64,000 nucleotides of DNA, from the NCBI GenBank assembly GCA_002127295.1, contig NFUV01000002.1, positions 62,001 through 126,000 of the forward strand, written 5' to 3'. Origin of the DNA: Chitinophagaceae bacterium IBVUCB2 (GTDB lineage Bacteria > Bacteroidota > Bacteroidia > Chitinophagales > Chitinophagaceae). The stretch's first letter is position 1. Each line of letters starts with the position of its first letter. The translations under genes and the position numbers were made by a program. Positions 51,307 to 63,349 of this stretch are shown one piece after another. Under the pieces are notes generated by a model. It had not been told where the DNA came from, searched no databases, and worked only from the letters and a program-made list of their open reading frames with translations.

Positions 51307-52650
51307 TTACCTGTCAAATTTAAGTCGTTGCCCTTGCTGTGATTCATCCCACACACTATTTCCATAAACTAAATGCCCATTCACAAATGTATGTGTGACC
51401 GAGGCCGGAAATGTGAAACCTTCCAACGGACTCCAGCCACATTTATATAATATGTTTTCTTTTGAAACAGTATTTGATCTCTTCAAGTCCACTATTACTA
51501 AATCCGCAAAACAGCCTTCCCGGATATAACCCCGGTCTTTTACCTGGAAACAATCTGCTACTGCATGGCTCATCTTCTCCGCTATTTTTTCCAATGAAAT
51601 GCGTCCTTGTTGATGGTGATGTAGCATTAAAGACAAAGAATGTTGTACCAACGGTAAACCTGCATGTGCTTTTTCATAAGGCTCGTCTTTTTCCTGCCAG
51701 GTATGCGGAGCATGGTCAGTTGCAATTACATCCAAACGATCATCCAGCAAAGCTTTCCATAATGCTTCTTTATTATTGGGAGCTTTAATTGCCGGATTGC
51801 ATTTTATCTTATTTCCCAACTGCGCATAATCGTCGCTGGTAAAATGTAAATGATGTACACATACTTCTGCAGTAATACGTTTATCTTTTAAGGGAAACAT
51901 ATTGGTAAAGAGTTGTAATTCTTTTTCTGTACTGATGTGCAGAATATGTAGCCTCGTATTGTATTTTTTTGCGATCTGGATGGCATATAAAGATGATTCA
52001 TAACAGGCTTCCTCGTTTCGGATGATGGGGTGGTCAGCAGCGGTTAATTCTTTTCCGGTTGCTTTTATTTTTTGCAGGTTCTGTTTAATGATGGATTCAT
52101 CTTCACAATGCGTAGCGATCAACACTTCGCTTTCTCTGAAGATCCTGTCTAATGTATTTGGATTATCTACCAGCATATTACCAGTACTGCTGCCCATGAA
52201 TATTTTTATGCCACAAACATCTTTTCTTTTGTAGTTCGTTTTTAAAACTTCTTCCGCATTGTCATTACCTGTACCCATAAAAAATGAATAATTGGCCAAT
52301 GAAGTTTTTGCAGCGATCGAATATTTATCTTCCAGCAATTCTTGTGTTAATGCATTGGGAACCGTATTCGGCATTTCCATAAAACTGGTGACACCACCCG
52401 CCACTGCAGCCTTTGCTTCGGTATAAATATTGGCTTTGTGTGTAAGTCCGGGCTCACGGAAATGAACCTGGTCGTCAATACAGCCGGGGAAGAGGTGTTT
52501 TCCCTCACCGTTTATCTCCTTAAAACCCGATTTGATCGTATCTATTCTTGATTGAATCTTCTCAATCTTATTTCCTGTTATCAACACATCTGCCGTTTGA
52601 ATGTGGCCTTCGTTGACAACCTGTATATTCTTTATCAGATATTTTTGCAT
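51307..52650 (-). CDS. pyrC: dihydroorotase, Bacteroidota type
   Basis: A 447-residue amidohydrolase. Family landmarks are GCIDDQVHFREPGLTHKANI (about 57-76), the lysine segment KIFMGSSTGN, histidines in THCEDES and HILHIST, and DHAPHTWQEKD. The usual HxH metal pair is QVH here. From memory this variant is usual in Bacteroidota dihydroorotases, so it does not imply loss of activity. It catalyses cyclisation of carbamoyl-aspartate in pyrimidine synthesis. Allantoinase is the alternative in this superfamily but fits the motif less well. It is divergent from the Wzi-like gene. Confidence 0.88.
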   Translation of the reverse strand: MQKYLIKNIQVVNEGHIQTADVLITGNKIEKIQSRIDTIKSGFKEINGEGKHLFPGCIDDQVHFREPGLTHKANIYTEAKAAVAGGVTSFMEMPNTVPNALTQELLEDKYSIAAKTSLANYSFFMGTGNDNAEEVLKTNYKRKDVCGIKIFMGSSTGNMLVDNPNTLDRIFRESEVLIATHCEDESIIKQNLQKIKATGKELTAADHPIIRNEEACYESSLYAIQIAKKYNTRLHILHISTEKELQLFTNMFPLKDKRITAEVCVHHLHFTSDDYAQLGNKIKCNPAIKAPNNKEALWKALLDDRLDVIATDHAPHTWQEKDEPYEKAHAGLPLVQHSLSLMLHHHQQGRISLEKIAEKMSHAVADCFQVKDRGYIREGCFADLVIVDLKRSNTVSKENILYKCGWSPLEGFTFPASVTHTFVNGHLVYGNSVWDESQQGQRLKFDR

Positions 52651-52679
52651 ATTTTGTTGGCTGAATCTAACTATGAATT

Positions 52680-54362
52680 ATGCAATTTAAAAAAACCCTT
52701 GTAAGACTGCTTGTAATTCTTTTGCCGCTTGCAAGTACTGCTCAATCTACCTTCCTGCCACAAGGCGATAAAGCCAATATATTACTGGAAAGACTGGAAA
52801 TCAAAAGCCGGTCGGATTCTTTTTTTATTTTCTCTAAAACAAAGCCCTACAGCCGCCGCCATGTTGTTAGGGCGGTAGATCACTATACGATACAGCCTGG
52901 CATTAAACTCTCCAAAGTAGATGCGCATAATGTGCGAAGCCTTTACATTAATAATTTAGAATGGGTACCGGAAGCCGACCGTTCCAATTTCCTCAGCAAA
53001 AAGCCTATCGGGAAAAGCTTTTATAAAACACCTGCCAATCTTTACGAAGTACATGTAAAAGATTTCGACCTGGTAGTTAACCCGGTCATTCAATTTACCC
53101 TGGGAAAAGAATCAAACAGCGACGAAAATCTTTTCTTGAATACAAGAGGCGTTTCTGTACGGGGACGAATTGCTAATAAGATCGGCTTCTTCTCCTATAT
53201 TACCGATAACCAGGAAAGAGATCCGGGGTATGTGCGCCAGTGGGTAACCGATAGGAGAGCAGTACCTGGCCAGGGTTTATATAAAACCTTCAAAGGACTG
53301 GGCTACGATTATTTTGATGCCCGTGGGTACATCACTTTCAACGTTACTAAATACATCGATGTTGCTTTTGGATACGATAAAAATTTCATCGGCAACGGTC
53401 ATCGCAGTTTGTTCCTGAGTGATTTTGGCAACAACAACCTGTTTTTAAAACTCAATACAAGAATCTGGAAGCTCAACTACCAGAACCTGTTCATGGAATT
53501 ACATTCCGCAACGCCCCCTTCCGCTACACAGTTGATACCTAAGAAATATGCTGCCATGCATCACTTAGATATCAATGTTACCAAATGGCTGAACATCGGA
53601 TTGTTTGAAGGGGTTACATTCGGCCGAAAAGACCGTTTTGATTTCGGTTATCTTAACCCGATCATTTTTTATCGTTCTGTGGAGCAGCAAAATGGAAGTT
53701 TTGATAATTCCATTATCGGACTTGATTTCAAAGCCAATTTGCCAAAACGTATCCAACTGTATGGTCAGCTGATGCTCGATGAGTTTTTACTCTCTGAAGT
53801 AAAAGCTAACAATGGGTGGTGGGCCAATAAATGGGGTATTCAGTTAGGCGCTAAATACATTGATGCCTTTAATATAAGTAACCTTGATCTGCAAGTGGAG
53901 CATAACCGGGTTCGTCCGTTTGCCTATTCTCATTATGATTCTGTTGCTAACTACACACATTATAATCAACCGTTGGCGCATCCGTTAATGGCCAACTTTA
54001 GTGAGTTTATTGGTATTGCCCGTTACCAGCCAGCACCAAAATGGCTTGCCGTTGCTAAGTTGATCTATTATCAGCAAGGCAGGGACAGTAGTAGCCGCAG
54101 TTTTGGGTCAAACATCTTCTTACCTAATGGTCCACCTTACAGAGTTGGCGACTATGGATACGATATTGGCAGTGGTTGGAAGACAGATGTGTTCATGGCA
54201 GCATTTCTTCTCTCTTATGAGCTAAGAGAAAATCTGTTTGTTGAACTAAACGCAGTGGCCAGGAAACAAAAAACAACAACGGCACCAATTACAAGTATGA
54301 ATTCTACGATCATCAATTTTGGAATTCGTTGGAATATGCATAGAAGGGATTTTGATTTTTAA
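52680..54362 (+). CDS. outer-membrane beta-barrel protein, capsule assembly Wzi-like
   Basis: A 560-residue exported protein (signal ending ASTAQ). An N-terminal helical/periplasmic part (about 25-140) precedes a long series of amphipathic strands: VKDFDLVVNPVIQFTLGK, GVSVRGRIANKIGFFSYITDNQ, YDKNFIGNGHRSLFLSDFGNNNLFLKL. It ends in NFGIRWNMHRRDFDF with a terminal phenylalanine. The IGNGHRSLFLSDF motif matches Wzi-type barrels, which bind surface polysaccharide at the outer membrane. No capsule locus is adjacent, so a general envelope role is equally possible. Confidence 0.72.
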   Translation: MQFKKTLVRLLVILLPLASTAQSTFLPQGDKANILLERLEIKSRSDSFFIFSKTKPYSRRHVVRAVDHYTIQPGIKLSKVDAHNVRSLYINNLEWVPEADRSNFLSKKPIGKSFYKTPANLYEVHVKDFDLVVNPVIQFTLGKESNSDENLFLNTRGVSVRGRIANKIGFFSYITDNQERDPGYVRQWVTDRRAVPGQGLYKTFKGLGYDYFDARGYITFNVTKYIDVAFGYDKNFIGNGHRSLFLSDFGNNNLFLKLNTRIWKLNYQNLFMELHSATPPSATQLIPKKYAAMHHLDINVTKWLNIGLFEGVTFGRKDRFDFGYLNPIIFYRSVEQQNGSFDNSIIGLDFKANLPKRIQLYGQLMLDEFLLSEVKANNGWWANKWGIQLGAKYIDAFNISNLDLQVEHNRVRPFAYSHYDSVANYTHYNQPLAHPLMANFSEFIGIARYQPAPKWLAVAKLIYYQQGRDSSSRSFGSNIFLPNGPPYRVGDYGYDIGSGWKTDVFMAAFLLSYELRENLFVELNAVARKQKTTTAPITSMNSTIINFGIRWNMHRRDFDF

Positions 54363-54427
54363 AATCTCCCTGACCGCCGAAGAAGTGTTCTTGTTCTCGG
54401 ATGTTGTAACTCAGGATTACCAATATT

Positions 54428-54835
54428 TTATTTTTTGAATAGCAATCTGTCCACAGAATATTTGCCGCTGCCTAGTACAAAAATAGGTAAGCATAAAAGC
54501 AAGTATAGCAGCGAAATTTGTTTGGCCGTAAACGGATCTTTTGCATGTGCAATAAAATAGGCTACTACCATCGTTATAAAAATCGGAATGATCGATAGAC
54601 GGGTAGCAAAACCGATCAATACAAAAAAGCCACAAAACAGTTCTGCAAAAATTACCAGGTTAAAGGAAAGCTTTGAGCCGATGCCAATAATATCTCCAAA
54701 CATAGGCAGTATCTGGTCGTATGATGCCAATTTTAAATATCCGTAATAGACAAACAGGCCGCCAACAATTAAACGAAGCCACAATGCAGCAACATCTGTA
54801 TTCAAAGATGCAGTATTGAAGATTTTATTTTTCAT
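54428..54835 (-). CDS. DoxX family membrane protein
   Basis: About 135 residues from ATG 54835, chosen over 54907 because the extra leader is polar and overlaps the upstream gene. It has four membrane helices with the DoxX pattern (ALWLRLIVGGLFVYYGYLKL ... FAELFCGFFVLIGFATRLSIIPIFITMVVAYF). DoxX-like proteins are membrane components linked to redox and detoxification complexes in other bacteria. It is the last gene of the ArsR-led operon, 20 bp after the first SRPBCC gene, so it is likely part of the same response. Confidence 0.88.
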   Translation of the reverse strand: MKNKIFNTASLNTDVAALWLRLIVGGLFVYYGYLKLASYDQILPMFGDIIGIGSKLSFNLVIFAELFCGFFVLIGFATRLSIIPIFITMVVAYFIAHAKDPFTAKQISLLYLLLCLPIFVLGSGKYSVDRLLFKK

Positions 54836-54855
54836 CTTTTTATATTTATAATGGA

Positions 54856-55287
54856 TTAAGCCTTCGCCAGGAATTTCGGGAGCAGGTTGCCGATCAATTC
54901 TGTCCATCCACCCATAAAACTTTCTTTTGCAAAATCAGGACCATTTTCCTGAAATGATTCTAATCCTTCATGAGTAAGCTTTAATCTTGTGGTTTCCCCT
55001 TCGGGAAATAACTCAAATGTTACGATAGAATATCCATCCAGGTTTTTATAGGTCCAGCTATACTCCAGCTTGCTTCCGGGAATAACTTCTAATACTTTGC
55101 ATAAATGAATAAATTCTTCACCGGTAGTTCCTTTTCCTGCAAACTGAAATTCAAAACCAACTTCTGGTTTAAAGGCTGACAGATCGAAATACCATTGCTT
55201 CATTTGTTCTTTATCGCTGATGGCTTTCCAAACTTTATCAGCAGTAGCATTAAGAACTCTCTCGATGGTGAATGCTGTTGTTTCCAT
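54856..55287 (-). CDS. SRPBCC (AHSA1-like) domain protein 1 of the ArsR operon
   Basis: A 143-residue single AHSA1/START-like helix-grip domain: FTIERVLNATADKVWKAISDKEQMKQWYFD at the start, EFQFAGKG and LEVIPGSKLEYSWTYKN in the middle, and a long C-terminal helix. SRPBCC domains make a hydrophobic cavity for small ligands, and the ligand here is unknown. It differs from the two paralogues upstream (WYFD instead of WWGP). Gap to the next gene upstream is 6 bp. Confidence 0.88.
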   Translation of the reverse strand: METTAFTIERVLNATADKVWKAISDKEQMKQWYFDLSAFKPEVGFEFQFAGKGTTGEEFIHLCKVLEVIPGSKLEYSWTYKNLDGYSIVTFELFPEGETTRLKLTHEGLESFQENGPDFAKESFMGGWTELIGNLLPKFLAKA

Positions 55288-55293
55288 ATTGTA

Positions 55294-55767
55294 TTATTTA
55301 AGTTGATTGTTTTGAATATATTCTTCCAGTTTTCTTAATGTTTGTTTGCCGCCTTCAACAGCATTGGCTGCTTTTACAACCCGATCTCTCACTTCAGCAG
55401 ATGAGAATAAGGCAGTCATTATAATATTTGTCTTGTTGCCCTGTTTTTCAAAAATGATAGTGTTATGAAAATGTATTGCTGGATTTTCATCATCAGAACT
55501 GTGTGCATATACAATCCGCTCAGGTTTTACTACCTCAGTAAAAACAATTTTATTGGGGTAATCTGTTCCATCCGGCCCATGCATCATAAAACGCCAAATG
55601 CCGCCGGGTTTTACTTCCATTTCATATATGGTATTGGTAAAGCCATCCGGGCCCCACCAATGTATAACATGCTCAGGATTGGTCCATACTTCCCACACTA
55701 ATTCTCTTGGTGCATTGACGAGGCGGGTAGTGACAAGTTCTCTATCTGCTGTAGTTGTTGCTGACAT
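55294..55767 (-). CDS. SRPBCC (AHSA1-like) domain protein 2 of the ArsR operon
   Basis: A 157-residue single domain: RELVTTRLVNAPRELVWEVWTNPEHVIHWWGPDGF, MEVKPGGIWRFMMHGPDGTDYPN and a C-terminal helix with GGKQTLRKLEEYI. The WWGP and HGPDGTDY motifs are shared with the next gene upstream, so the two are tandem paralogues. Both overlap or abut their neighbours (6-bp spacing), the packing of a single operon. Cytoplasmic; ligand unknown. Confidence 0.88.
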   Translation of the reverse strand: MSATTTADRELVTTRLVNAPRELVWEVWTNPEHVIHWWGPDGFTNTIYEMEVKPGGIWRFMMHGPDGTDYPNKIVFTEVVKPERIVYAHSSDDENPAIHFHNTIIFEKQGNKTNIIMTALFSSAEVRDRVVKAANAVEGGKQTLRKLEEYIQNNQLK

Positions 55768-55773
55768 AGTTGT

Positions 55774-56226
55774 TTATTTTTGATGTTGTAATACATATTC
55801 AAGACGGTCGAAATTTTCTTCATTGGCCGCCGCAATAAAATGATGTAATTTTTCATACTCACTCAGCAAATCAAATTGCATACTAAAGCTAAGCCGGGTG
55901 CTTTTATTCAATTCCTCAAAAGTGGCAGTAACTGTGAAAGTATGTATGGGCTCTATATGTTCAAGAACAATTTTATCAGGACTTTTTATTTCTACAAAGC
56001 GGCATTCATTAAAATAGTCTGTTCCGTCGGGAGCATGCATGGTAAACTTCCATTCACCACCAGCGGTAAAATCAAACTCATGAAAGGTATTGCTGAAACC
56101 TTTCGGGCCCCACCATTGCGCTAACAACTGCGGATCGGCCCATGCATTGAACACCTGGTTTATTGGGTGGTTGAAAAGCCTTATAGTAATTATTTCAGGT
56201 ACAACTGTTTTATTTTCTCTTTGCAT
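55774..56226 (-). CDS. SRPBCC (AHSA1-like) domain protein 3 of the ArsR operon
   Basis: A 150-residue AHSA1-like protein (IITIRLFNHPINQVFNAWADPQLLAQWWGPKGFSNTFHEF, FTMHAPDGTDYFNECRFVEI), a close paralogue of the preceding SRPBCC protein. Its start overlaps the end of the arsR gene by 17 bp, so the two are translationally coupled. ArsR directly in front of AHSA1 proteins is a recurrent arrangement in which the regulator controls the SRPBCC gene. Confidence 0.88.
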   Translation of the reverse strand: MQRENKTVVPEIITIRLFNHPINQVFNAWADPQLLAQWWGPKGFSNTFHEFDFTAGGEWKFTMHAPDGTDYFNECRFVEIKSPDKIVLEHIEPIHTFTVTATFEELNKSTRLSFSMQFDLLSEYEKLHHFIAAANEENFDRLEYVLQHQK

Positions 56227-56560
56227 GAGTTTTCCTTTTTGGTTTAGCAGGTGCCTGCAAAGTATTCAGGTAGTTTTCGAGTGCATCAAGTTTGGCCGTC
56301 CAGAATTTCTTGTACTGTTCTACCCATTCAGAAACTTCATTCAGCTTATCAAGTTTTGCTTCACAAAATCTTTCTCTTCCCTGTTGTTTAATAGTTACCA
56401 AACCACATTCGGTCAATATTTTAATATGCTTTGAAATAGCAGGCCGGCTCTGTTGAAATTTATCAGCAACAGAATTTAAGTTCATAGATTCATGGGCAAT
56501 CATATTAATAATAGCTCTGCGTGTTGGGTCAGCAATGGCCTGGAATACGTCCCGTCTCAT
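56210..56560 (-). CDS. ArsR-family winged-helix repressor
   Basis: A 116-residue regulator. It opens MRRDVFQAIADPTRRAIINMIAH, the recognition region is VADKFQQSRPAISKHIKILTECGLVTIKQQGRERFC and a basic tail follows (KPKRKTHAKRK). It lacks the cysteine metal-binding CxC motif, so it is not a metal sensor of the classic type. It belongs to the group that precedes AHSA1 genes. It should bind the GTAAC-type inverted repeat at its own promoter and repress the operon arsR - three SRPBCC - doxX. Inducer unknown. Confidence 0.9.
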   Translation of the reverse strand: MRRDVFQAIADPTRRAIINMIAHESMNLNSVADKFQQSRPAISKHIKILTECGLVTIKQQGRERFCEAKLDKLNEVSEWVEQYKKFWTAKLDALENYLNTLQAPAKPKRKTHAKRK

Positions 56561-56577
56561 AGTGAAAATTTAATTAT

Positions 56578-56593
56578 GTAACTAATCGGTTAC
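56578..56593. promoter_or_regulatory. ArsR operator candidate
   Basis: GTAACTAATCGGTTAC is an inverted repeat with 5-bp arms (GTAAC and GTTAC) overlapping the -7 element and the expected start site of the arsR promoter. A second TCGGTTAC copy lies 24 bp away (56610-56617) in the spacer, within an imperfect GTAACC/GGTTTC repeat. The position predicts autorepression. Confidence 0.55.
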
Positions 56594-56622
56594 AAATATA
56601 GGAAACCTTTCGGTTACGCAAA
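56593..56622 (-). promoter_or_regulatory. promoter of the arsR-SRPBCC-doxX operon
   Basis: On the minus strand, TTTG (complement of 56619-56622) is followed after 18 nt by TATATTTG (complement of 56593-56600), an exact match to the Bacteroidota consensus. The core AGGTTTCCTATATTTGT is identical to that of the glxA-like promoter at 62331-62361. Confidence 0.65.
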
Positions 56623-56667
56623 ATTTATTTTCACTTTCAGGCAATGTGTTTAGAAGTTAGCCCTGCA

Positions 56668-57078
56668 TTACGATTTAGGAACCTGGCTTTCATCCATATA
56701 CAACAACTCCCACTGGTGACCATCCAGGTCAGCAAAGCTATGTTGGTACATCCAGCCATGATCGGCAGGTGTTGTGTAGATGGAGCCTCCGGCTTCAACT
56801 GCTTTTGCTACTGACTCATCTACTTTTTCCCTGCTTTCTGCATCAATAGCAATCAGTACTTCCGTAGTTTTTGTGGCATCTGCAATTTGTTTTTTGGTAA
56901 AGGTTTGAAACATCGGCTCGGTAAGCAGCATTGCATATATACTTCCATCATTAATAATCAGACAAGCGGCTTTCTCATCCGTAAACTGGAGGTTGAAGGA
57001 AAATCCTAAATGTGTAAAGAAGTCCATTGACTTTTTTAAATCTTTAACCGGCAGGTTCACAAAAATTTTACTTGGCAT
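56668..57078 (-). CDS. VOC family (glyoxalase-like) protein
   Basis: A 136-residue single vicinal-oxygen-chelate domain: MPSKIFVNLPVKDLKKSMDFFTHLGFSFN, CLIINDGSIYAMLL and the C-terminal HSFADLDGHQWELLYMD, with the DPDGHxWEL pattern. VOC proteins hold a metal and act on small electrophiles, antibiotics or isomers; here the substrate is unknown. It is the last gene of the nine-gene operon from 62239, just before the arsR promoter. Confidence 0.88.
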   Translation of the reverse strand: MPSKIFVNLPVKDLKKSMDFFTHLGFSFNLQFTDEKAACLIINDGSIYAMLLTEPMFQTFTKKQIADATKTTEVLIAIDAESREKVDESVAKAVEAGGSIYTTPADHGWMYQHSFADLDGHQWELLYMDESQVPKS

Positions 57079-57111
57079 AGCATTTCATTTTATATGTAAT
57101 GGAAATTAGTT

Positions 57112-57870
57112 TCAGCTTTTCTTTAAGCCTAAATAGTATTCTCTTTTCTTTTTATCAAAGTGCTCAATGGAATAACGCAATAAAGTGCGGGGCATAGTAG
57201 CTGCATATTTATCCAAAAAAGCTACCAGTTTTTTGGGTTCTTTCGTTCCCGCAAAGCGCAACATCCATCCAGTTGCTTTATGCACCAGGTCTTCTTTGTC
57301 TTTTACCAACAGTTCAGCGATCTTGAACGTATCTTTCACATCCTGCTGCCTGATAAAATAGCAGGTGCTTAGAATGGCAGTTCGTCGCTCCCAAATATTT
57401 TTCGATTTTGCTAATTTATATAAAATGGTATGCGACTTATCATATAAATAACTGCCGGTCATATGCAAACAACCTAAGTCAACCAGGTCCCAATTATTAA
57501 TTCGATCATGACGGCGCATGTATAATTCATAAAACTCTTTTCGTCTTTCCGGGCTTGTCTTTTTATTACGGGATTCTTTATCCATGATACTTACCCCGCC
57601 TGCTCTTACTTCATGTATCCGGCTTTCCAAAAGTTTTTCAATCTCAACAACAGGCATTCCTTCAAATTCTTTTGCCAAAGAAAACAACTGTCCCATTTTT
57701 ACACCCATAAATTTATCGCCATGCCCATATTCTCCTTCGCCTGATTTAAAATACCGCTGAATTTTTTTCAATTCAATATCCGATTGATAGGTCTTTAATT
57801 TTTGAATAAACTCTTTAGCAGTAAGTTTGATTGGTGAAATTGCTTTTGTTGTTTTCTGTATGGTCGCCAT
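57112..57870 (-). CDS. AlkD-like DNA alkylation repair protein
   Basis: A 252-residue HEAT-like repeat protein of the AlkD DNA glycosylase family. The key segment INNWDLVD places Trp127 and Asp131 with the same four-residue spacing as the aromatic/aspartate pair in the B. cereus enzyme. The second aromatic lies in KATGWMLRFAG. Members remove N3- and N7-alkylated purines. Its presence next to DinB, VOC and SRPBCC genes is the main clue that the operon answers alkylating or electrophilic damage. It sits 12 bp from the next gene. Confidence 0.88.
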   Translation of the reverse strand: MATIQKTTKAISPIKLTAKEFIQKLKTYQSDIELKKIQRYFKSGEGEYGHGDKFMGVKMGQLFSLAKEFEGMPVVEIEKLLESRIHEVRAGGVSIMDKESRNKKTSPERRKEFYELYMRRHDRINNWDLVDLGCLHMTGSYLYDKSHTILYKLAKSKNIWERRTAILSTCYFIRQQDVKDTFKIAELLVKDKEDLVHKATGWMLRFAGTKEPKKLVAFLDKYAATMPRTLLRYSIEHFDKKKREYYLGLKKS

Positions 57871-57882
57871 GCTTACACGGTA

Positions 57883-58182
57883 TTATTTCCTGAAGGATAG
57901 CTTATTTGATTTTAAAACGCTTCGCAGTATAGGAATTGTTGCCTTTCCCATTCCATGCAATTGTAATATCTCAGCTTCAGTTCTTTTAGCTAGCTGTGCT
58001 GCTGTTTTAATGCCACTATTTTCCAATGCCCTTCTTGCAGGTGCTGATAACAGGGATAAAAAGCCATCAATGGGTTTTTTGGCTGCTTCGCAAACCGGGC
58101 AAGTTGGACAATCTGTGCTCTTATAAAATATATGGCCTTCGCTGCAAACCCGTCGATTCGTTGATGAAACTTTTTTCTTCAT
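57883..58182 (-). CDS. small zinc-ribbon plus helix-hairpin-helix protein
   Basis: A 99-residue protein. The N-terminus has a cysteine cluster (VCSEGHIFYKSTDCPTCPVC) that looks like a small zinc finger. The C-terminal half (LSAPARRALENSGIKTAAQLAKRTEAEILQLHGMGKATIPIL) resembles the alpha-subunit C-terminal domain of RNA polymerase, a helix-hairpin-helix DNA/protein-binding fold. It could be a DNA-binding accessory of the operon. It lies between AlkD and a two-domain VOC gene. Confidence 0.7.
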   Translation of the reverse strand: MKKKVSSTNRRVCSEGHIFYKSTDCPTCPVCEAAKKPIDGFLSLLSAPARRALENSGIKTAAQLAKRTEAEILQLHGMGKATIPILRSVLKSNKLSFRK

Positions 58183-58197
58183 TTCGATGTATTGATA

Positions 58198-59049
58198 TCA
58201 ACTTACAGCTGCTTTTTCCAGATCGGCAATAATAAATTTTCTCATTTTCAAAAAGGCTTCCATTACTTTTTGTGCTTTAGAAGGATCTGACATTAATTTT
58301 CCTAACACAGCAGGAACAATTTGCCAGGAAACACCAAACTTATCTTTGAGCCATCCGCACATACTTTCCTCCCCACCGTCTGCGGTAAGTTTATTCCAGT
58401 AGAAATCTATTTCTTTCTGGTTGCTGCATTCAACTACAAAAGAAATGGCTTCATTAAAACCAAATTCATGACTGCCCGGTCCATCCATCGCCATAAAAAC
58501 TTTATCATCCAGGATAAACTGGGAGTGTTTTACATTGCCGGCAGCCTGTTCTTCATTCTCACCATACAATAATATACCGGTGATGGAGGATGCCGGAAAC
58601 AGCGCCGTATAAAATTTAACAGCTTCTTCCGCTTTTCCATAACGGTTGCCGGTAAATAAAAAGCAAGGAGTTATTTTCTGATTTACATCGCTGTATTTTC
58701 CTTTCATCAATTGCCAGGAAAGACCAAAACGGTCTTCGAGGAAACCATATCGTTCACTCCAGTCATATTTGTCAAGCGGCATCATTATCTTGCCACCATC
58801 AGCAAGTTGTTTCCATAGTTCATTGATCTCATCGTCTGATTCGCAAACCACAAAAAATGAAATAGCTGGATTTGGTTTGAACATAGGTCCGCCATTCAAC
58901 CCCATAAATTTTTGACCTGCAATTTCAAAGTTTACTACCATGGGTGTATCGGCCGTGATAGTTGAATTAGGAAACAGGGAGCAATAGAATTCAGCAGCAG
59001 CTTTTGCATTGCCATCATACCAAATACAGGGGTGAATGTTGTTTTTCAT
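58198..59049 (-). CDS. tandem-domain VOC (PhnB-like) protein
   Basis: A 283-residue protein with two head-to-tail PhnB/3-demethylubiquinone methyltransferase-like VOC domains. The first is at about 1-130 (IHPCIWYDGNAKAAAEFYCSLFPNSTI, YDWSERYGFLEDRFGLSWQL). The second is at about 130-265 (ITPCFLFTGNRYGKAEEAVKFYTALFPAS, CGWLKDKFGVSWQIVP). The repeats are alike in motif order, so this is an internal duplication. Cytoplasmic; substrate unknown. It has 15-17-bp gaps on both sides. Confidence 0.87.
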   Translation of the reverse strand: MKNNIHPCIWYDGNAKAAAEFYCSLFPNSTITADTPMVVNFEIAGQKFMGLNGGPMFKPNPAISFFVVCESDDEINELWKQLADGGKIMMPLDKYDWSERYGFLEDRFGLSWQLMKGKYSDVNQKITPCFLFTGNRYGKAEEAVKFYTALFPASSITGILLYGENEEQAAGNVKHSQFILDDKVFMAMDGPGSHEFGFNEAISFVVECSNQKEIDFYWNKLTADGGEESMCGWLKDKFGVSWQIVPAVLGKLMSDPSKAQKVMEAFLKMRKFIIADLEKAAVS

Positions 59050-59066
59050 TTTCAGGTATTTAAAAG

Positions 59067-59921
59067 TTAGATCGATTCGGTATGTTTTTTATAGCTATTA
59101 AGAATTGCCTGCCATCCATCTCTTTGCATGTCCAATGAGTTTTGATTCTCTGCATCAAAAGTTTCTGTTACGATGGTCTTGCCATCCTTTTCTTCAAACA
59201 AGATGGTGGCTTTTCTTCCATCGCCCATTGTATAGCTCATAGATCTATGTTTTGTTACTTCGGTGTATTCACCACCAAAATCAAAACTGAAACTGCCATC
59301 TTTAGCGGCCATCGTAGTTTTAAAGGTGCCGCCAACTTTTACATCATTATCAGCATAAGGAGCATGCCAATCATCTGATGCCTGGCACCATTTGGTAATA
59401 TGCGCCGGATCTGTCCATGTTTCCCAGGCTTTTTCAACAGGGGCATTAATTACTGCAGTAATGGTAATAGGTACTTTGGTAGTTCCTTCTGCCAGTTCTT
59501 TTATATTTTTAAGAGCAATAGGCCACATCTTTTCAAACATTTCTTTGAATTCATCTACTATATCCATGTCAACAGTAAGAGTACTTACTCCATTATCTTC
59601 TTGCAAAGAATAATTTTCAGTAGAACCGCTCCATACTTTTATTTTTTCACTGGTGGTGTCTTCTACATCGCCAGTTACTTCGCCCAGGTGTTTGAACGAC
59701 ATGTATTCGTTTGGTTTGTTAACAGCCACCATACTTACCATGCCATTTCCACTCTGGTCAACAAACAATACTTTGCTTCCTTCTTTCCAGTTATCTGTTT
59801 TTACATCCGAACCTTCGCTAAAAGCAGTTGTCCATTTGCGATAAGCATCAAGGTTCCATAATATTTCCCATACTTTTTCTTTGGGAGCATTAATTGTTGT
59901 AGAGAATTTAATCTTTTGCAT
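59067..59921 (-). CDS. tandem-domain SRPBCC (AHSA1-like) protein
   Basis: A 284-residue protein. Two SRPBCC domains are joined head to tail: the first, about 1-145, begins IKFSTTINAPKEKVWEILWNLDAYRKWTTAF. The second, about 150-284, begins ITAVINAPVEKAWETWTDPAHITKWCQASDDWHAP. The first retains a divergent ligand-cavity sequence, and the second keeps the WC(Q) variant of the family motif. The ligand is unknown. Both flanking genes (VOC, DUF1801) also have duplicated domains. Confidence 0.88.
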   Translation of the reverse strand: MQKIKFSTTINAPKEKVWEILWNLDAYRKWTTAFSEGSDVKTDNWKEGSKVLFVDQSGNGMVSMVAVNKPNEYMSFKHLGEVTGDVEDTTSEKIKVWSGSTENYSLQEDNGVSTLTVDMDIVDEFKEMFEKMWPIALKNIKELAEGTTKVPITITAVINAPVEKAWETWTDPAHITKWCQASDDWHAPYADNDVKVGGTFKTTMAAKDGSFSFDFGGEYTEVTKHRSMSYTMGDGRKATILFEEKDGKTIVTETFDAENQNSLDMQRDGWQAILNSYKKHTESI

Positions 59922-59938
59922 AGAAGTTGTTTTAATAA

Positions 59939-60703
59939 TTATTTGGTGTCAATTGATTTTACAATTTCATTGATGATGCGGGAGAGTTCTTTTTTGTTTT
60001 TCTCAGCTTCAGCTTTGTTTTTAAAATAAATTAATCTCCTGTCTTTATATTCTCCCTGTAGTAATTCAGATTTTACTTTTACCACAGCAGGGTGATGAAA
60101 TACCAGTAGCAGTTTGTCTTTTTTATAAGGGCCGAATGTTACAATATCTTCCTTATAGTAATAGCTAGGTGCATTCCACTTAATTCTTTCATTGAGTTTG
60201 GCAGAAGCAGCTTTGATTATTTTACGAACAGCTTCAATTTCTTTTTTGGTAGCTGTATCCAACTTGTCTATCCAGCTTTTTACTTGCTGCTCATCGGTTG
60301 GCTTGGCTGTTTTCTTTGTAACAGGTTTTTTTGCAGCTGCTTTTTCTTTATTTTTTTCTATCCTGTATTTTACAATCTGTGTTATCAATCCTGAGGGTAA
60401 AGGTTTATCTAGCGCAAACTTTACGGTGCCTTTAGAACCTTCATATTTCGATAACTCTTTTTTAAAAGCTTCAATTCCATTAGGTGCGGGATAAAAGCCA
60501 ATATGATTTTTATAGCCACCAAAATGAACAAGATTTCCATCCAGCACAAATGTGGGAATACCATAGCTGATTGTTTCTGTAGCTTTTGGAGCGGCTTTTT
60601 TTATGATAGCCCTCATTTTTTGCAGCACTAACTGCACTTCCTTTGGAAACCCTGCTATGTATTCATCTGTCGTTTTAATTGCTGTGTTCATTCTTGTTGC
60701 CAT
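59939..60703 (-). CDS. tandem DUF1801-like protein
   Basis: A 254-residue protein. The N-terminal DUF1801 domain (about 1-115: KTTDEYIAGFPKEVQLVLQKMRAIIKKAAPKATETISYGIPTFVLDGNLVHFGGYKNHIGFYPAP) is followed by a lysine-rich linker. A second DUF1801-like domain follows (about 140-250: VKSWIDKLDTATKKEIEAVRKIIKAASAKLNERIKWNAPSYYYKEDIVTFGPYKKDKLLLVFH). The fold is a small alpha/beta domain found in electrophile-related clusters; the biochemical role is unknown. Confidence 0.87.
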   Translation of the reverse strand: MATRMNTAIKTTDEYIAGFPKEVQLVLQKMRAIIKKAAPKATETISYGIPTFVLDGNLVHFGGYKNHIGFYPAPNGIEAFKKELSKYEGSKGTVKFALDKPLPSGLITQIVKYRIEKNKEKAAAKKPVTKKTAKPTDEQQVKSWIDKLDTATKKEIEAVRKIIKAASAKLNERIKWNAPSYYYKEDIVTFGPYKKDKLLLVFHHPAVVKVKSELLQGEYKDRRLIYFKNKAEAEKNKKELSRIINEIVKSIDTK

Positions 60704-60730
60704 TTATTTATTATTTAAATCAAACAGGGA

Positions 60731-61264
60731 TTATTTTTCTAAAATAACTTTTAAGTTCTCCAAATTCTTTTGCATGTCTTTTCCTACTAATTTTCCCATA
60801 AACAGGTTAGAAAAATTCATGGGAAATTTTGATTTGCCATAAAACAAATTTGATACAGTCGTTTGCCCATTGCCTGCGGAGCTGACGGTAGTTACAGCAT
60901 TATTAGTAGCCTGGAAAGGTTTTTTAAAACGAATTTCAACTTCCATGCTCTCACCATCTGTTATCTTTTTTATTTCCTGTTCACCCACACCCACATTTTT
61001 GTCATCACTTGTCCATGCTGATGTTGCACCAACTGTTCCGTCATTACCAGTGTACACTAATTTTATATTAGGGTCTTTCATTACCCATATGCTGTAATAT
61101 TCCTGGTTTTTCAGCAGCTTCAGGTAATTAAACACTTCCTGTTTTGCTTTGCTGATAGTTATTTGTTTTTCAACACTAAATTCTCTTGGTGTAAAGAATG
61201 CAATAATTAAAAACAGGGCAATAAGGCTGCCAATTACAGCTAGTATGGTAATTAAAATACTCAT
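60731..61264 (-). CDS. membrane-anchored SRPBCC domain protein
   Basis: A 177-residue protein. An N-terminal hydrophobic helix (about 3-25, ILITILAVIGSLIALFLIIAFF) anchors a single SRPBCC domain (about 30-177: REFSVEKQITISKAKQEVFNYLKLLKNQEYYSIW, GATSAWTSDD, then a helix at the C-terminus). It is the only member of the cluster fixed to the membrane besides DoxX. The ligand is unknown. It sits 27 bp upstream of the DUF1801 gene. Confidence 0.85.
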   Translation of the reverse strand: MSILITILAVIGSLIALFLIIAFFTPREFSVEKQITISKAKQEVFNYLKLLKNQEYYSIWVMKDPNIKLVYTGNDGTVGATSAWTSDDKNVGVGEQEIKKITDGESMEVEIRFKKPFQATNNAVTTVSSAGNGQTTVSNLFYGKSKFPMNFSNLFMGKLVGKDMQKNLENLKVILEK

Positions 61265-61297
61265 GGTAATTTTTTTTGAGTGAACCTTAAAGCTATT

Positions 61298-61714
61298 CTA
61301 TTTTTTATTTTTATCGAAATGCAGCAGCCAGTGATTTCCAAATTTATCTGTCAGGTCGCCGAATAAGGCACCCCAGAAACTGATTTCCAAAGGGTGAGCA
61401 GAAACTCCGTCAGCCGAAAGTTTTGCATAGCAATCTTTAATTTCCTTTTCACTGTTACAATCAAGCATCAGCGAAACAGCATTACCCCTGAGCAACCCTC
61501 TATTCGCAACCATGTCAGAGCCTAACAGTACTAATTTGTCATTGGTAAGTGTAGCATGTAAAATACTGTCTTTCATTTGTTGCGGCATTTTATCTGCCAA
61601 CGGCGATTCTCCAATAGTTTGCAATTCAAGTTCGCCACCGAGGCAGTCTTTATAAAATGTCATCGCTTCCCTGCAATTACCATTGAAGGTTAAGTATGAA
61701 TTAATAAATGCCAT
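61298..61714 (-). CDS. single-domain PhnB-like VOC protein
   Basis: A 138-residue VOC/PhnB-like protein (MAFINSYLTFNGNCREAMTFYKDCLGGELELQTIGESP ... FWGALFGDLTDKFGNHWLLHF). It lies 3 bp after the DinB gene and has the same fold as the two other VOC proteins of the operon, which makes four VOC domains in one transcript. Substrate unknown. Confidence 0.88.
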   Translation of the reverse strand: MAFINSYLTFNGNCREAMTFYKDCLGGELELQTIGESPLADKMPQQMKDSILHATLTNDKLVLLGSDMVANRGLLRGNAVSLMLDCNSEKEIKDCYAKLSADGVSAHPLEISFWGALFGDLTDKFGNHWLLHFDKNKK

Positions 61715-61717
61715 AGT

Positions 61718-62239
61718 TTATTTCTTATGAGTTGATAAAATATTTTTTAATTGAATAGTGTGTCGTTGTACATGAAATAGGATGAATTGAATCCATTCAT
61801 ATCTTGTTAGAAACCCGAAAGTGGGAAACTCAAAATCCATACAGGCTTCATCCAACGGTTTGCAATTGATAATACTTGTTAAATAGAGTTTGTTGACTTC
61901 AAGTTCTTTTAACAGTTCATTTCTGTCATACTGCTTTTCTTCCGGTATGATAAAATCCGGCGCCTTCATTTTTATTTCCATGTTCAGAAAAAGCACTTTT
62001 AATTTTTCTACCTGTTCATCATATGGCCGCCCTGTTTTTTTAATTTGCGAATCAGGAATACCTGCAGTTGCTTTTATAATATGTTGAGCTACTTGTCCCG
62101 CTGTCCAGCTTCCTGCAAATGGCACTTCATTTATTTGTGAGGTTGTAAACAAGGAAACAAGATTTACAAAGTCAGTAAAACTCTGCTCCAGTTTTTCTGT
62201 GAGTTTTGTTGTGTCAGGTATTGCTGCTGAAACTTTCAT
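61718..62239 (-). CDS. DinB superfamily protein (first gene of the operon)
   Basis: A 173-residue four-helix DinB/YfiT-like protein. The family metal-binding histidines are likely present: GSWTAGQVAQHIIKATAGI carries His in helix 2, and FLTRYEWIQFILFHVQRHTIQL carries a HxxxH pair in the last helix. DinB-like enzymes of this type act as metal-dependent thiol transferases (bacillithiol or glutathione type), which suits a detoxification operon. It is the first gene after the divergent regulator. Enzymatic partner thiol unknown. Confidence 0.85.
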   Translation of the reverse strand: MKVSAAIPDTTKLTEKLEQSFTDFVNLVSLFTTSQINEVPFAGSWTAGQVAQHIIKATAGIPDSQIKKTGRPYDEQVEKLKVLFLNMEIKMKAPDFIIPEEKQYDRNELLKELEVNKLYLTSIINCKPLDEACMDFEFPTFGFLTRYEWIQFILFHVQRHTIQLKNILSTHKK

Positions 62240-62330
62240 TTCTAAAAAATTAGGTGCTTTTTTTGTTTACAGCACAAAGATGTTTTGAATAATTGATTGG
62301 GAAGGGTGGCGTATATGACATATTAACGGG

Positions 62331-62361
62331 TTGATTGCGACAAAGAGGTTTCCTATATTTG
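62331..62361 (+). promoter_or_regulatory. promoter of the GlxA-like regulator, near-leaderless
   Basis: TTG (62331-62333) is followed after 20 nt by TATATTTG (62354-62361). The start codon at 62366 is only 5 nt beyond the element, so the transcript would begin at or next to the ATG. Confidence 0.6.
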
Positions 62362-62365
62362 TTTT

Positions 62366-63349
62366 ATGAAAAAAGTATCTATACTGGTTCCTGAATCATC
62401 AGTAATGCAAGCCATTGCTGATCCTCAGTATCTTTTTAGTGCAGTCAATAAATTTTTGTTGTCTGCCGGTAAGCCGCCATTGTTTGAAGTGGAACTTGTT
62501 GGAGCAAAGAAAGAAGTACATATAAACAATGGCTCGTACTCAGTACATCCTGACAAGCAATTAAAAGAAGTAAAGGAAACAGACCTGATTATTATCCCTG
62601 CTTTGTTGGGAGATATGCCGGCGGCAATAGAAAAGAACAAAGCATTGGTACCGTGGATTCAGGACAAATATTATAATGGGGCAGAAGTGGCATCTCTTTG
62701 TGTAGGGGCATTTTTATTAGCATCAACAGGATTGCTGAACGGGAAAAAATGTTCGACACATTGGGGCTTTCAAAACGAATTCAGGGAAATGTTTCCAGAA
62801 GTGGAAGTGGTAGAAGGCAGCATAGTAACTGAAGAAAAAAGAATTTATTCCAGCGGGGGTGCCAACTCTTACTGGAATTTACTTTTGCACCTGGTAGAAA
62901 AATATACCAACCGCCAAACGGCTATTCTTGCCTCTAAGTATTTTGCAATTGATATTGACCGTAACAGCCAGGCTGCTTTTGCCATGTTTAAAGGGCAGAA
63001 AGATCACACGGATAAGGAGATAAAAAAAGCACAGGACTATATTGAAAAAAATATTCATGAAAAAATTACGATCGATGAACTGGCAGGCCATGCGGCCATC
63101 AGTCGCAGAACATTTGAACGACGGTTCAGGTTAGCTACCAATAACTCCGTACTGGAATATGTTCAGCGGATAAAAATAGAAGCGGCTAAACGACAGTTTG
63201 AAAACAGCCGGAAGAATATTAATGAAGTGATGTATGATGTGGGCTACACCGATACCAAAGCTTTTCGGGACCTGTTTAAAAAAATAACCGGGCTTACACC
63301 TATAGAATATAGAAATAAGTATAATAAGCAGGCTGTGGCCGTAATCTAG
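62366..63349 (+). CDS. GlxA-family regulator: DJ-1/PfpI domain with AraC helix-turn-helix
   Basis: A 327-residue regulator. The N-terminal DJ-1/PfpI domain (about 1-195) carries the elbow sequence VASLCVGAFLLASTGLLNG with the conserved cysteine, and IYSSGGANSYWNLLLHLVEKY near its end. The C-terminal AraC DNA-binding domain (about 215-320) has HEKITIDELAGHAAISRRTFERRFRLATNNSVLEYVQRIKIEAAKRQFE and the second helix pair. It is divergent from the nine-gene DinB operon and is the best candidate activator for it; the ligand of the DJ-1 part is unknown. Confidence 0.92.
   Translation: MKKVSILVPESSVMQAIADPQYLFSAVNKFLLSAGKPPLFEVELVGAKKEVHINNGSYSVHPDKQLKEVKETDLIIIPALLGDMPAAIEKNKALVPWIQDKYYNGAEVASLCVGAFLLASTGLLNGKKCSTHWGFQNEFREMFPEVEVVEGSIVTEEKRIYSSGGANSYWNLLLHLVEKYTNRQTAILASKYFAIDIDRNSQAAFAMFKGQKDHTDKEIKKAQDYIEKNIHEKITIDELAGHAAISRRTFERRFRLATNNSVLEYVQRIKIEAAKRQFENSRKNINEVMYDVGYTDTKAFRDLFKKITGLTPIEYRNKYNKQAVAVI

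What the first reader, a model, noticed from the sequence alone, without database searches (positions are those of the whole stretch)
54428..63349. Candidate electrophile/alkylation-response module: DinB, VOC, SRPBCC, DUF1801, AlkD, HhH, ArsR, DoxX under a divergent GlxA regulator
Fourteen minus-strand genes with gaps mostly of 3-33 bp run from 62239 to 54428. They include DinB, four VOC domains, six SRPBCC domains, DUF1801 x2, AlkD, a zinc/HhH protein, ArsR and DoxX, and a divergent GlxA-type regulator bounds them. DinB-type thiol transferases, glyoxalase-like VOC and AlkD have recognised roles in handling electrophiles and alkylated DNA. SRPBCC, DUF1801 and HhH roles are unknown. The inference is a single response to an electrophilic or alkylating compound, with small-molecule binders for sensing or sequestration. 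I do not know of a described system with this composition.
Basis: partly seen in the sequence, partly recalled or inferred. Interest (0 to 1): 0.75.

Follow-up and report, generated by a model that had tools for sequence, protein, structure and literature searches.

The report
Plug-in detox operon with conserved switch
A row of 14 small genes sits next to one control gene whose DNA docking site is kept nearly unchanged in many Bacteroidota while the controlled genes are swapped freely, which suggests an inducible, exchangeable kit against toxic small molecules.

Summary
In detail: 14 minus-strand genes with the stated domains, divergent from a DJ-1/AraC ("GlxA-type") regulator. It is two units, not one. 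(1) Nine genes (DinB to VOC3) lie downstream of a conserved operator, a direct repeat with half-sites 22 bp apart (consensus TGTCGCAATCAACCCCTTAAATTGCCGTATTTACAC; window copy 62307-62342). The motif scores positive in 66 of 82 regulator upstreams (0 of 1460 control windows) and in 27 of 28 loci outside the window's family that were not used to build it (one not readable). The commonest spacing to a Bacteroidota -7 box is 24 nt on the cassette side and 11 nt on the regulator side; the window fits both (one mismatch in the cassette box). (2) ArsR, three SRPBCC genes and DoxX have their own promoter with two palindromes, seen in 9 of 14 ArsR homologues. Cargo is exchanged: the first gene changes family at least 34 times among 74 loci on the regulator tree. 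AlkD is an occasional member. A toxicant-response function is plausible (invariant Cys112, DinB His triad, AlkD catalytic residues, bshC) but not shown. Six searches of open-licence papers listed no description of it.

The parts
62366..63349 (+). GlxA-type regulator: DJ-1/PfpI-like domain + AraC HTH; Cys112 and His132 invariant, Cys129 nearly so
   Evidence: Cys112 and His132 in 110 of 110, Cys129 in 103 of 110 regulators
62307..62342 (-). putative regulator operator, tandem direct repeat, half-sites 22 bp apart, reading toward the cassette
   Evidence: 66 of 82 upstream regions, 0 of 1460 control windows; 27 of 27 readable loci outside the family; only strong site in the window
62275..62282 (-). 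-7 box of the cassette promoter (CATCTTTG, one mismatch to TAnnTTTG), 24 nt from the operator
   Evidence: spacing counts
62354..62361 (+). -7 box of the regulator's own promoter (TATATTTG), 11 nt from the operator
   Evidence: spacing counts
61718..62239 (-). DinB_2 protein, His53/His156/His160 triad, candidate bacillithiol S-transferase
61298..61714 (-). VOC (PhnB-like, PF06983)
60731..61264 (-). SRPBCC (Polyketide_cyc2), hydrophobic N-terminus
59939..60703 (-). two DUF1801 stretches (weakly YdhG-like by PDB sequence)
59067..59921 (-). two SRPBCC/AHSA1 domains
58198..59049 (-). two PhnB-like VOC domains
57883..58182 (-). Cys-rich N-terminus + RNAP alpha-CTD-like HhH (PRK07758)
57112..57870 (-). 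AlkD-type DNA glycosylase with W127, D131, W202 at the catalytic positions
56668..57078 (-). VOC, last gene of the regulator-controlled unit
56602..56617 (-). first ArsR-type palindrome GTAACCGAAAGGTTTC
   Evidence: homologues
56593..56622 (-). internal promoter: TTTG, 18 nt, TATATTTG
56578..56593 (-). second ArsR-type palindrome GTAACCGATTAGTTAC
   Evidence: homologues
56210..56560 (-). ArsR repressor, start of the second unit
55774..56226 (-). SRPBCC/AHSA1, overlaps ArsR by 17 bp
55294..55767 (-). SRPBCC/AHSA1
54856..55287 (-). SRPBCC/AHSA1
54428..54835 (-). DoxX membrane protein; likely start at 54835, not 54907

Best explanation
A dedicated, inducible xenobiotic/electrophile tolerance locus built as a fixed dock with exchangeable cargo. 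The regulator (DJ-1/PfpI-like sensor with invariant Cys112 and His132, plus AraC DNA-binding domain) binds a tandem direct repeat between two divergent promoters. When its sensor pocket is triggered (inferred: by an electrophile reacting with Cys112, or by a ligand binding there) it activates the cassette promoter from a site just upstream of the -7 box (inferred) and adjusts its own expression through the same site (inferred). The cassette makes single-domain ligand binders and enzymes: DinB conjugates toxicants to bacillithiol, VOC/SRPBCC/DUF1801 proteins bind or convert them, AlkD excises alkylated bases (all inferred from family). ArsR-SRPBCC x3-DoxX is a second, separately repressed unit downstream (inferred from its promoter) that may also be reached by read-through. 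Shown here: genes and domains, conserved repeat, favoured promoter spacing, recurrence, cargo turnover. Not shown: binding, inducer, enzyme activities.
For: Repeat in 66 of 82 upstreams versus 0 of 1460 control windows, and in 27 of 27 readable loci outside the family, not used to build the motif, with 1 site above the same threshold in 380 kb of control. Exact TAnnTTTG at 24 nt in 35 of 66 and at 23 nt in 6; on the regulator side at 11 nt in 23 of 66. Box, exact or one mismatch, at 22-26 nt in 52 of 55 operator loci with a cassette against 4 of 11 without (Fisher p 4e-5). Operator and cassette associated: 52 of 64 against 6 of 16 (p 0.001). Pfam: a sample of 120 divergent-side genes gives PF06983 30, DoxX_2 14, AHSA1 13, RibD_C 13, DinB_2 10; none of these is among the 25 families listed for 120 control genes. 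Of 20 operator matches not beside a regulator listed, 7 score over 20, and in 6 of these the first gene in reading direction is DinB (3), SRPBCC, DUF1801 or DoxX. Cys112 in 110 of 110. BshC in the genome, DinB His triad, AlkD catalytic residues. AlkD plus HhH under the operator in L239 and L249.
Against: No expression, binding or phenotype data. Twelve of 64 operator loci have no recognised cassette and 6 of 16 operator-negative loci have one, though at least two of the 16 (L063, L113) carry the half-site at another spacing. Two of the 27 outside loci score only 13.8, close to the control maximum of 12.9. Pseudomonas ArgR, of the same class (domain recalled), senses a metabolite, arginine (PMC10963909), so the trigger may be a ligand. 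AlkD is rare in the cassettes. Cys112 and Cys129 are conserved in the operator-negative regulators too (16 and 13 of 16), so they are not tied to this operator. B. subtilis bst mutants showed no growth defect under stressors (PMC5815605, passages). The window's cassette -7 box has one mismatch.
Confidence: 0.6

Rival explanations
1. The regulator senses an ordinary small metabolite, as arginine is sensed by Pseudomonas ArgR, and the cassette is a catabolic or modifying pathway for one family of compounds, not a toxicant response.
For: Same regulator class (recalled) and a similar half-site: ArgR's ARG box TGTCGCN6GNAA in tandem, 5 bp apart, against TGTCGCAATCAACCCC with a 22-bp period here.
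Against: Cargo is not a coherent pathway: small binders and enzymes are swapped among loci with regulator and operator kept. AlkD and HhH are hard to fit in a catabolic route. Cys112 is invariant.
Confidence: 0.22
2. Resistance to particular genotoxic natural products, as in self-resistance sets that use an AlkD-type glycosylase (YtkR2) with drug-modifying or drug-binding proteins; the exchangeable cargo reflects different toxins.
For: AlkD homologues act on bulky adducts of yatakemycin-type drugs (PMC8626424, passages); a mycobacterial DinB operon with a divergent regulator is induced by zeocin and H2O2 (SiwR, PMC10693628, passages); one VOC protein matches Ble-like_N.
Against: My label GyrI-like for a frequent first gene is not confirmed by Pfam or by PDB sequences. 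Most cassettes lack AlkD. No biosynthetic cluster was sought.
Confidence: 0.13
3. Gene accumulation: small stand-alone enzymes collect behind a convenient inducible promoter with no common function; only the regulator's autoregulation is under selection.
For: DoxX and SRPBCC presence is near random on the regulator tree (20 changes against 21.0 shuffled; 24 against 27.2). Some operator loci have no cassette.
Against: The same few families recur, also at operators away from the regulator; the cassette-side -7 box is kept where a cassette is present (52 of 55) and less so where not (4 of 11).
Confidence: 0.05

Closest known systems
YqhC-yqhDE and NemR-nemRA-gloA of E. coli (electrophile/glyoxal response)
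   Same: Dedicated regulator beside a detoxification operon; YqhC is AraC-type and divergent; Cys-based sensing in NemR (PMC5297802, passages)
   Different: Different cargo; no DJ-1 sensor domain and no exchange of cargo behind a fixed operator in the passages seen
SiwR-dinS (Mycobacterium smegmatis)
   Same: Divergent dedicated activator; DinB genes, in some Actinobacteria with a glyoxalase-like gene; genotoxic induction (PMC10693628, passages)
   Different: WYL-domain regulator, palindromic operator, two-gene operon, Actinobacteria
Pseudomonas ArgR (AraC/XylS; DJ-1/GATase1-like domain recalled)
   Same: Tandem direct repeats with TGTCGC half-sites (PMC10963909, passages)
   Different: Arginine regulator with many predicted sites; here one strong site in the window and one exact 15-mer match in the genome
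AlkD/YtkR2 DNA glycosylases
   Same: Catalytic Trp/Asp/Trp conserved in the window's AlkD
   Different: YtkR2 is a self-resistance gene inside a biosynthetic cluster; here AlkD is cargo of a regulated cassette

Membership tests
DJ-1/PfpI + AraC (GlxA-type) regulator | DJ-1/PfpI domain followed by AraC HTH | tested here: met
DJ-1/PfpI + AraC (GlxA-type) regulator | binding to tandem direct repeats | tested here: inconclusive
   conserved repeat found; binding itself cannot be tested here
DJ-1/PfpI + AraC (GlxA-type) regulator | Cys at the DJ-1 nucleophile position (position recalled; not defining for all members) | tested here: met
   Cys112 in 110 of 110
Electrophile-response operon (NemR/YqhC type) | induction by electrophiles through the regulator | not testable with these tools
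   no expression data
Electrophile-response operon (NemR/YqhC type) | dedicated adjacent regulator with an operator at the operon promoter | tested here: met
   by sequence only:
AlkD DNA glycosylase | PF08713 and catalytic Trp109/Asp113/Trp187 (B. cereus numbering) | tested here: met
   for the window; in L239, L247 and L249 the last Trp is shifted by one residue in the alignment
DinB/STL bacillithiol S-transferase | three conserved His | tested here: met
   His53, His156, His160 in 29, 30 and 32 of 32 aligned sequences, window included; cf. BstA H67/H160/H164
DinB/STL bacillithiol S-transferase | host makes bacillithiol | tested here: inconclusive
   bshC found; bshA and bshB not searched
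DinB/STL bacillithiol S-transferase | thiol transfer activity | not testable with these tools
   needs an assay
Self-resistance set of a genotoxin cluster | neighbouring biosynthetic cluster | not tested
   of the window only 51307-63349 was annotated
ArsR-repressed operon | palindromic operator at its own promoter | tested here: met
   by sequence only: of 14 homologue upstreams 11 have at least one such palindrome (up to one mismatch) and 9 have two; the window has two

The most novel reading that the evidence does not exclude
Bacteroidota carry a phylum-wide plug-in tolerance system: one conserved Cys-bearing DJ-1/AraC sensor, one conserved two-way operator-promoter dock, and freely exchanged cargo of single-domain small-molecule binders and enzymes (VOC, SRPBCC, RibD_C, DoxX, DinB, DUF1801, AlkD, HhH and others), so that the sensed chemistry is shared while the defence repertoire is strain-specific.
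Probability: 0.45. Interest if true: 0.75.

Novelty: new variant of a known kind. Interest (0 to 1): 0.62.

Why it matters
VOC, SRPBCC, DUF1801, DoxX, RibD_C and DinB proteins are widespread and mostly without a known substrate (recalled). A conserved operator and a single sensor give a handle: if the inducer is found once, the likely ligand class of many such proteins follows. It would also be a case of cargo exchange behind a fixed promoter dock; whether any recombination element drives it was not examined.

Tried and rejected
Whole 14-gene operon as one unit: rejected because of the internal ArsR promoter. AlkD as the heart of the module: of the 13 AlkD loci with the highest identity (L009-L021; all titled as Bacteroidota groups except L019, titled only 'bacterium'), 7 have same-strand cassette-family neighbours (L009, L010, L011, L016, L018, L019, L020), L013 and L014 have one opposite-strand neighbour and 4 have none adjacent (my reading); among 147 family genomes 7, the own one included, hold an AlkD of 59% identity or more. 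GyrI-like plus AlkD as a yatakemycin-type pair (L011): dropped, the three members of that first-gene family that I scanned have no Pfam hit and the family profile has no convincing PDB match; one other cassette protein of 29 is Cass2/GyrI-like. Regulon spread through the own genome: 15-mer matches with up to two mismatches do not exceed the reversed control (39 against 52). Foreign origin by composition: GC 0.373 and 0.382 against 0.385 for the rest of the window. Paper searches: searches returned 0, 0, 1, 0, 6 and 1 papers; of these I opened one (PMC5297802, passages), the others were judged by listing. Open-licence PMC only. Structure prediction was not run.

Caveats on counts. The 80 loci are the matches down to E about 3e-116 (54% identity), less the own locus, G120:C462 (no upstream DNA) and G007:C24, which was fetched as L085 with 14 lower matches (L086-L099); these 15 were mapped but not counted. 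Family labels come from profiles seeded on the window and on these loci, and gene calling prefers labelled ORFs, so they favour the cassettes. The Pfam check uses samples of 120 of 167 cassette-side genes and 120 of 172 control genes; control genes were called without labels, only the 25 commonest families are listed, so single control hits could be hidden, and YCII, which I count as a cassette family, has 2 control hits. Without the unconfirmed GyrI label 192 of 295 becomes 180, and first genes of a cassette family 53 becomes 43 of 80. The motif was trained on the same 82 sequences; the loci were not used for it. In one search, L188 was left out (a genome of the window's family) and L177 had no labelled regulator: 27 of 28. 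The 40 loci are 40 of the 42 matches outside the family listed and overlap those; two (L253, L258) scored no operator. In one search the cassette state of the window, L011 and L067 was set by hand; L067 (same contig as L009) counts as having no cassette because of the 500-bp gap rule, though one search shows one. Of the 57 exact 15-mer sites, 25 are by my reading not beside a regulator listed; 20 of these were fetched. L234 and L235 turned out to lie beside other GlxA-type regulators. Of the 7 that score over 20, L237 is not before a cassette gene; 13 of the 20 score lower or not at all.
Full report
What is there. The fourteen minus-strand genes and the divergent regulator are at the stated coordinates with the stated domains. 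Gaps are 3-33 bp in 10 of 13 junctions; the others are 107 bp before ArsR, a 17-bp overlap ArsR/SRPBCC, and a DoxX overlap that disappears with the start at 54835. The genome is 4.0 Mb in 3 contigs.

The regulator is common, the cargo varies. In 147 genomes of the family the regulator has a match at E <= 1e-40 in 92 and AlkD at E <= 0.001 in 31, but AlkD of 59% identity or more in only 7, the own genome included. Most of the gene order recurs in L009/L067 and L011; in L009 DinB and DoxX are not labelled and HhH stands elsewhere. Across 80 regulator loci, 58 have at least one cassette-family gene in the divergent gene run, the first gene is of a cassette family in 53, and 192 of 295 genes are, against 3 of 322 in 20 control regions. 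Families by loci: VOC 37, SRPBCC 29, DoxX 21, RibD_C 19, an unconfirmed GyrI-resembling family 12, DUF1801 11, DinB 11, ArsR 5, SnoaL 3, YCII 1. Pfam on samples agrees (YCII has 2 control hits). Further cargo seen by Pfam among unlabelled genes includes DUF899 (5 of 29), GNAT acetyltransferases (3) and ABM (2). At phylum level 38 of 247 genomes, own-family ones included, hold the regulator at E <= 1e-80; of 40 such loci outside the family, 33 have a cassette and 38 a repeat scoring above 12. AlkD is there in L239, L247 and L249 (one family code, f23), with the HhH gene in L239 and L249. AlkD there is 48-51% identical to the window's, and the HhH proteins of L218, L239, L241 and L249 56-63%.

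The operator. Word counts in 260-bp regulator upstreams showed TGTCGCAA in 34 of 82 against 0.9 expected from first-order shuffles. The refined 42-column motif has a 36-bp core that is a tandem direct repeat, half-sites starting 22 bp apart (21 in some loci). It exceeds 10 bits in 66 of 82 upstreams, in all 66 in the orientation reading toward the divergent side, and in 0 of 1460 control windows. At least two of the 16 negatives carry the half-site at another spacing. On loci not used for training it is above 12 in 27 of 27 readable ones, two of them at 13.8, against 1 site (12.9) in 380 kb of control. The Bacteroidota -7 box TAnnTTTG (motif recalled) lies exactly 24 nt beyond it in 35 of 66 loci and 23 nt in 6; on the regulator side it lies 11 nt away in 23 of 66. 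In the window the boxes are CATCTTTG at 24 and TATATTTG at 11. With a cassette present, 52 of 55 operator loci have the box, exact or with one mismatch, at 22-26 nt; without, 4 of 11. The simplest reading is activation of the cassette by a dimer bound just upstream of the -7 box, plus autoregulation (inference). The repeat resembles the ARG box of Pseudomonas ArgR.

Targets elsewhere. In the own genome the 15-mer core has one exact match, at this locus; 57 exact matches in 147 genomes compare with 18 for the reversed pattern (my addition of the control columns). Of 20 sites not beside a regulator listed, 7 score above 20. In 6 of these the first gene in the reading direction is a cassette-family gene: DinB in L219, L234 and L236, DUF1801 in L222, SRPBCC in L229, DoxX in L235; L234 and L235 also have another GlxA-type regulator on the other side; L237 has no such gene. 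So the operator predicts the kind of gene behind it even where this regulator is not adjacent.

The second unit. The 107-bp gap holds TTTG-18 nt-TATATTTG, with GTAACCGAAAGGTTTC just upstream of the -7 box and GTAACCGATTAGTTAC overlapping its last base. Of 14 ArsR homologue upstreams, 11 have at least one such palindrome and 9 have two; three have none by this pattern. ArsR-SRPBCC x3-DoxX is therefore probably a separately repressed unit; read-through from the first unit is possible.

Turnover. On a quick tree of 110 regulators the first gene's family changes at least 34 times among 74 loci (100 shuffles: mean 47.5, minimum 42). Among 82 loci with a cassette, DoxX presence changes 20 times (21.0 shuffled), SRPBCC 24 (27.2), DinB 13 (16.2), DUF1801 12 (15.4), VOC 12 (19.3), RibD_C 14 (26.6). 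Cargo is partly inherited and largely exchanged. The tree is quick, with 37 of 107 inner branches starred.

Function. For electrophile/xenobiotic handling: Cys112 and His132 are invariant in 110 regulators and Cys129 nearly so (103), but also in the 16 without a scored operator (Cys112 16, Cys129 13), so they mark the regulator class and not this operator; the nearest chain in the PDB (3er6) has Thr and Ala at these places. The DinB protein keeps the His triad of bacillithiol transferases, the genome has bshC, and bacillithiol synthesis is reported or predicted for Bacteroidetes (PMC6282198, abstract and passages). AlkD keeps the catalytic Trp/Asp/Trp. Against: no inducer data, a metabolite-sensing precedent (ArgR), no growth defect of bacillithiol transferase mutants in B. 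subtilis. I put toxicant response at about 0.6, metabolite response at about 0.2.

Known relatives. It works like YqhC-yqhDE, NemR-nemRA-gloA and SiwR-dinS, each a dedicated regulator with a detoxification or stress operon, but is none of them. Six searches of the open-licence PMC library listed no paper whose title or abstract start describes this combination; subscription papers and preprints were not searched. Papers were seen as search listings, abstracts or passages only, none in full.

Noticed in passing
L022-L038: AlkD-type proteins of 39-47% identity to the window's occur in records titled mostly as Patescibacteria-type bacteria and archaea, a wide spread that suggests transfer.
   Followed up: no
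L041: Several operator-like half-site matches spaced about 50 bp apart upstream of the regulator.
   Followed up: no
L219 (G028:C11): Full operator with a -7 box at 24 nt in front of DinB-SRPBCC and no labelled regulator within the 6 kb fetched: possibly controlled in trans.
   Followed up: partly
L009: A second ArsR-SRPBCC cluster beyond the regulator has a different palindrome pair around its -7 box (read by eye), so ArsR operator specificity seems to diverge.
   Followed up: no
L239:4776-5255: The HhH protein here is 159 aa and the window's HhH protein matches it in two stretches, which suggests a duplicated HhH part.
   Followed up: no
own genome G000: Ten DinB_2 matches, nine over the Pfam cut-off, spread over three contigs: DinB is a multi-copy family in this organism.
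   Followed up: no
window 52680-54362: A protein weakly like Wzi (below the Pfam cut-off) converges on the cassette's DoxX end.
   Followed up: no
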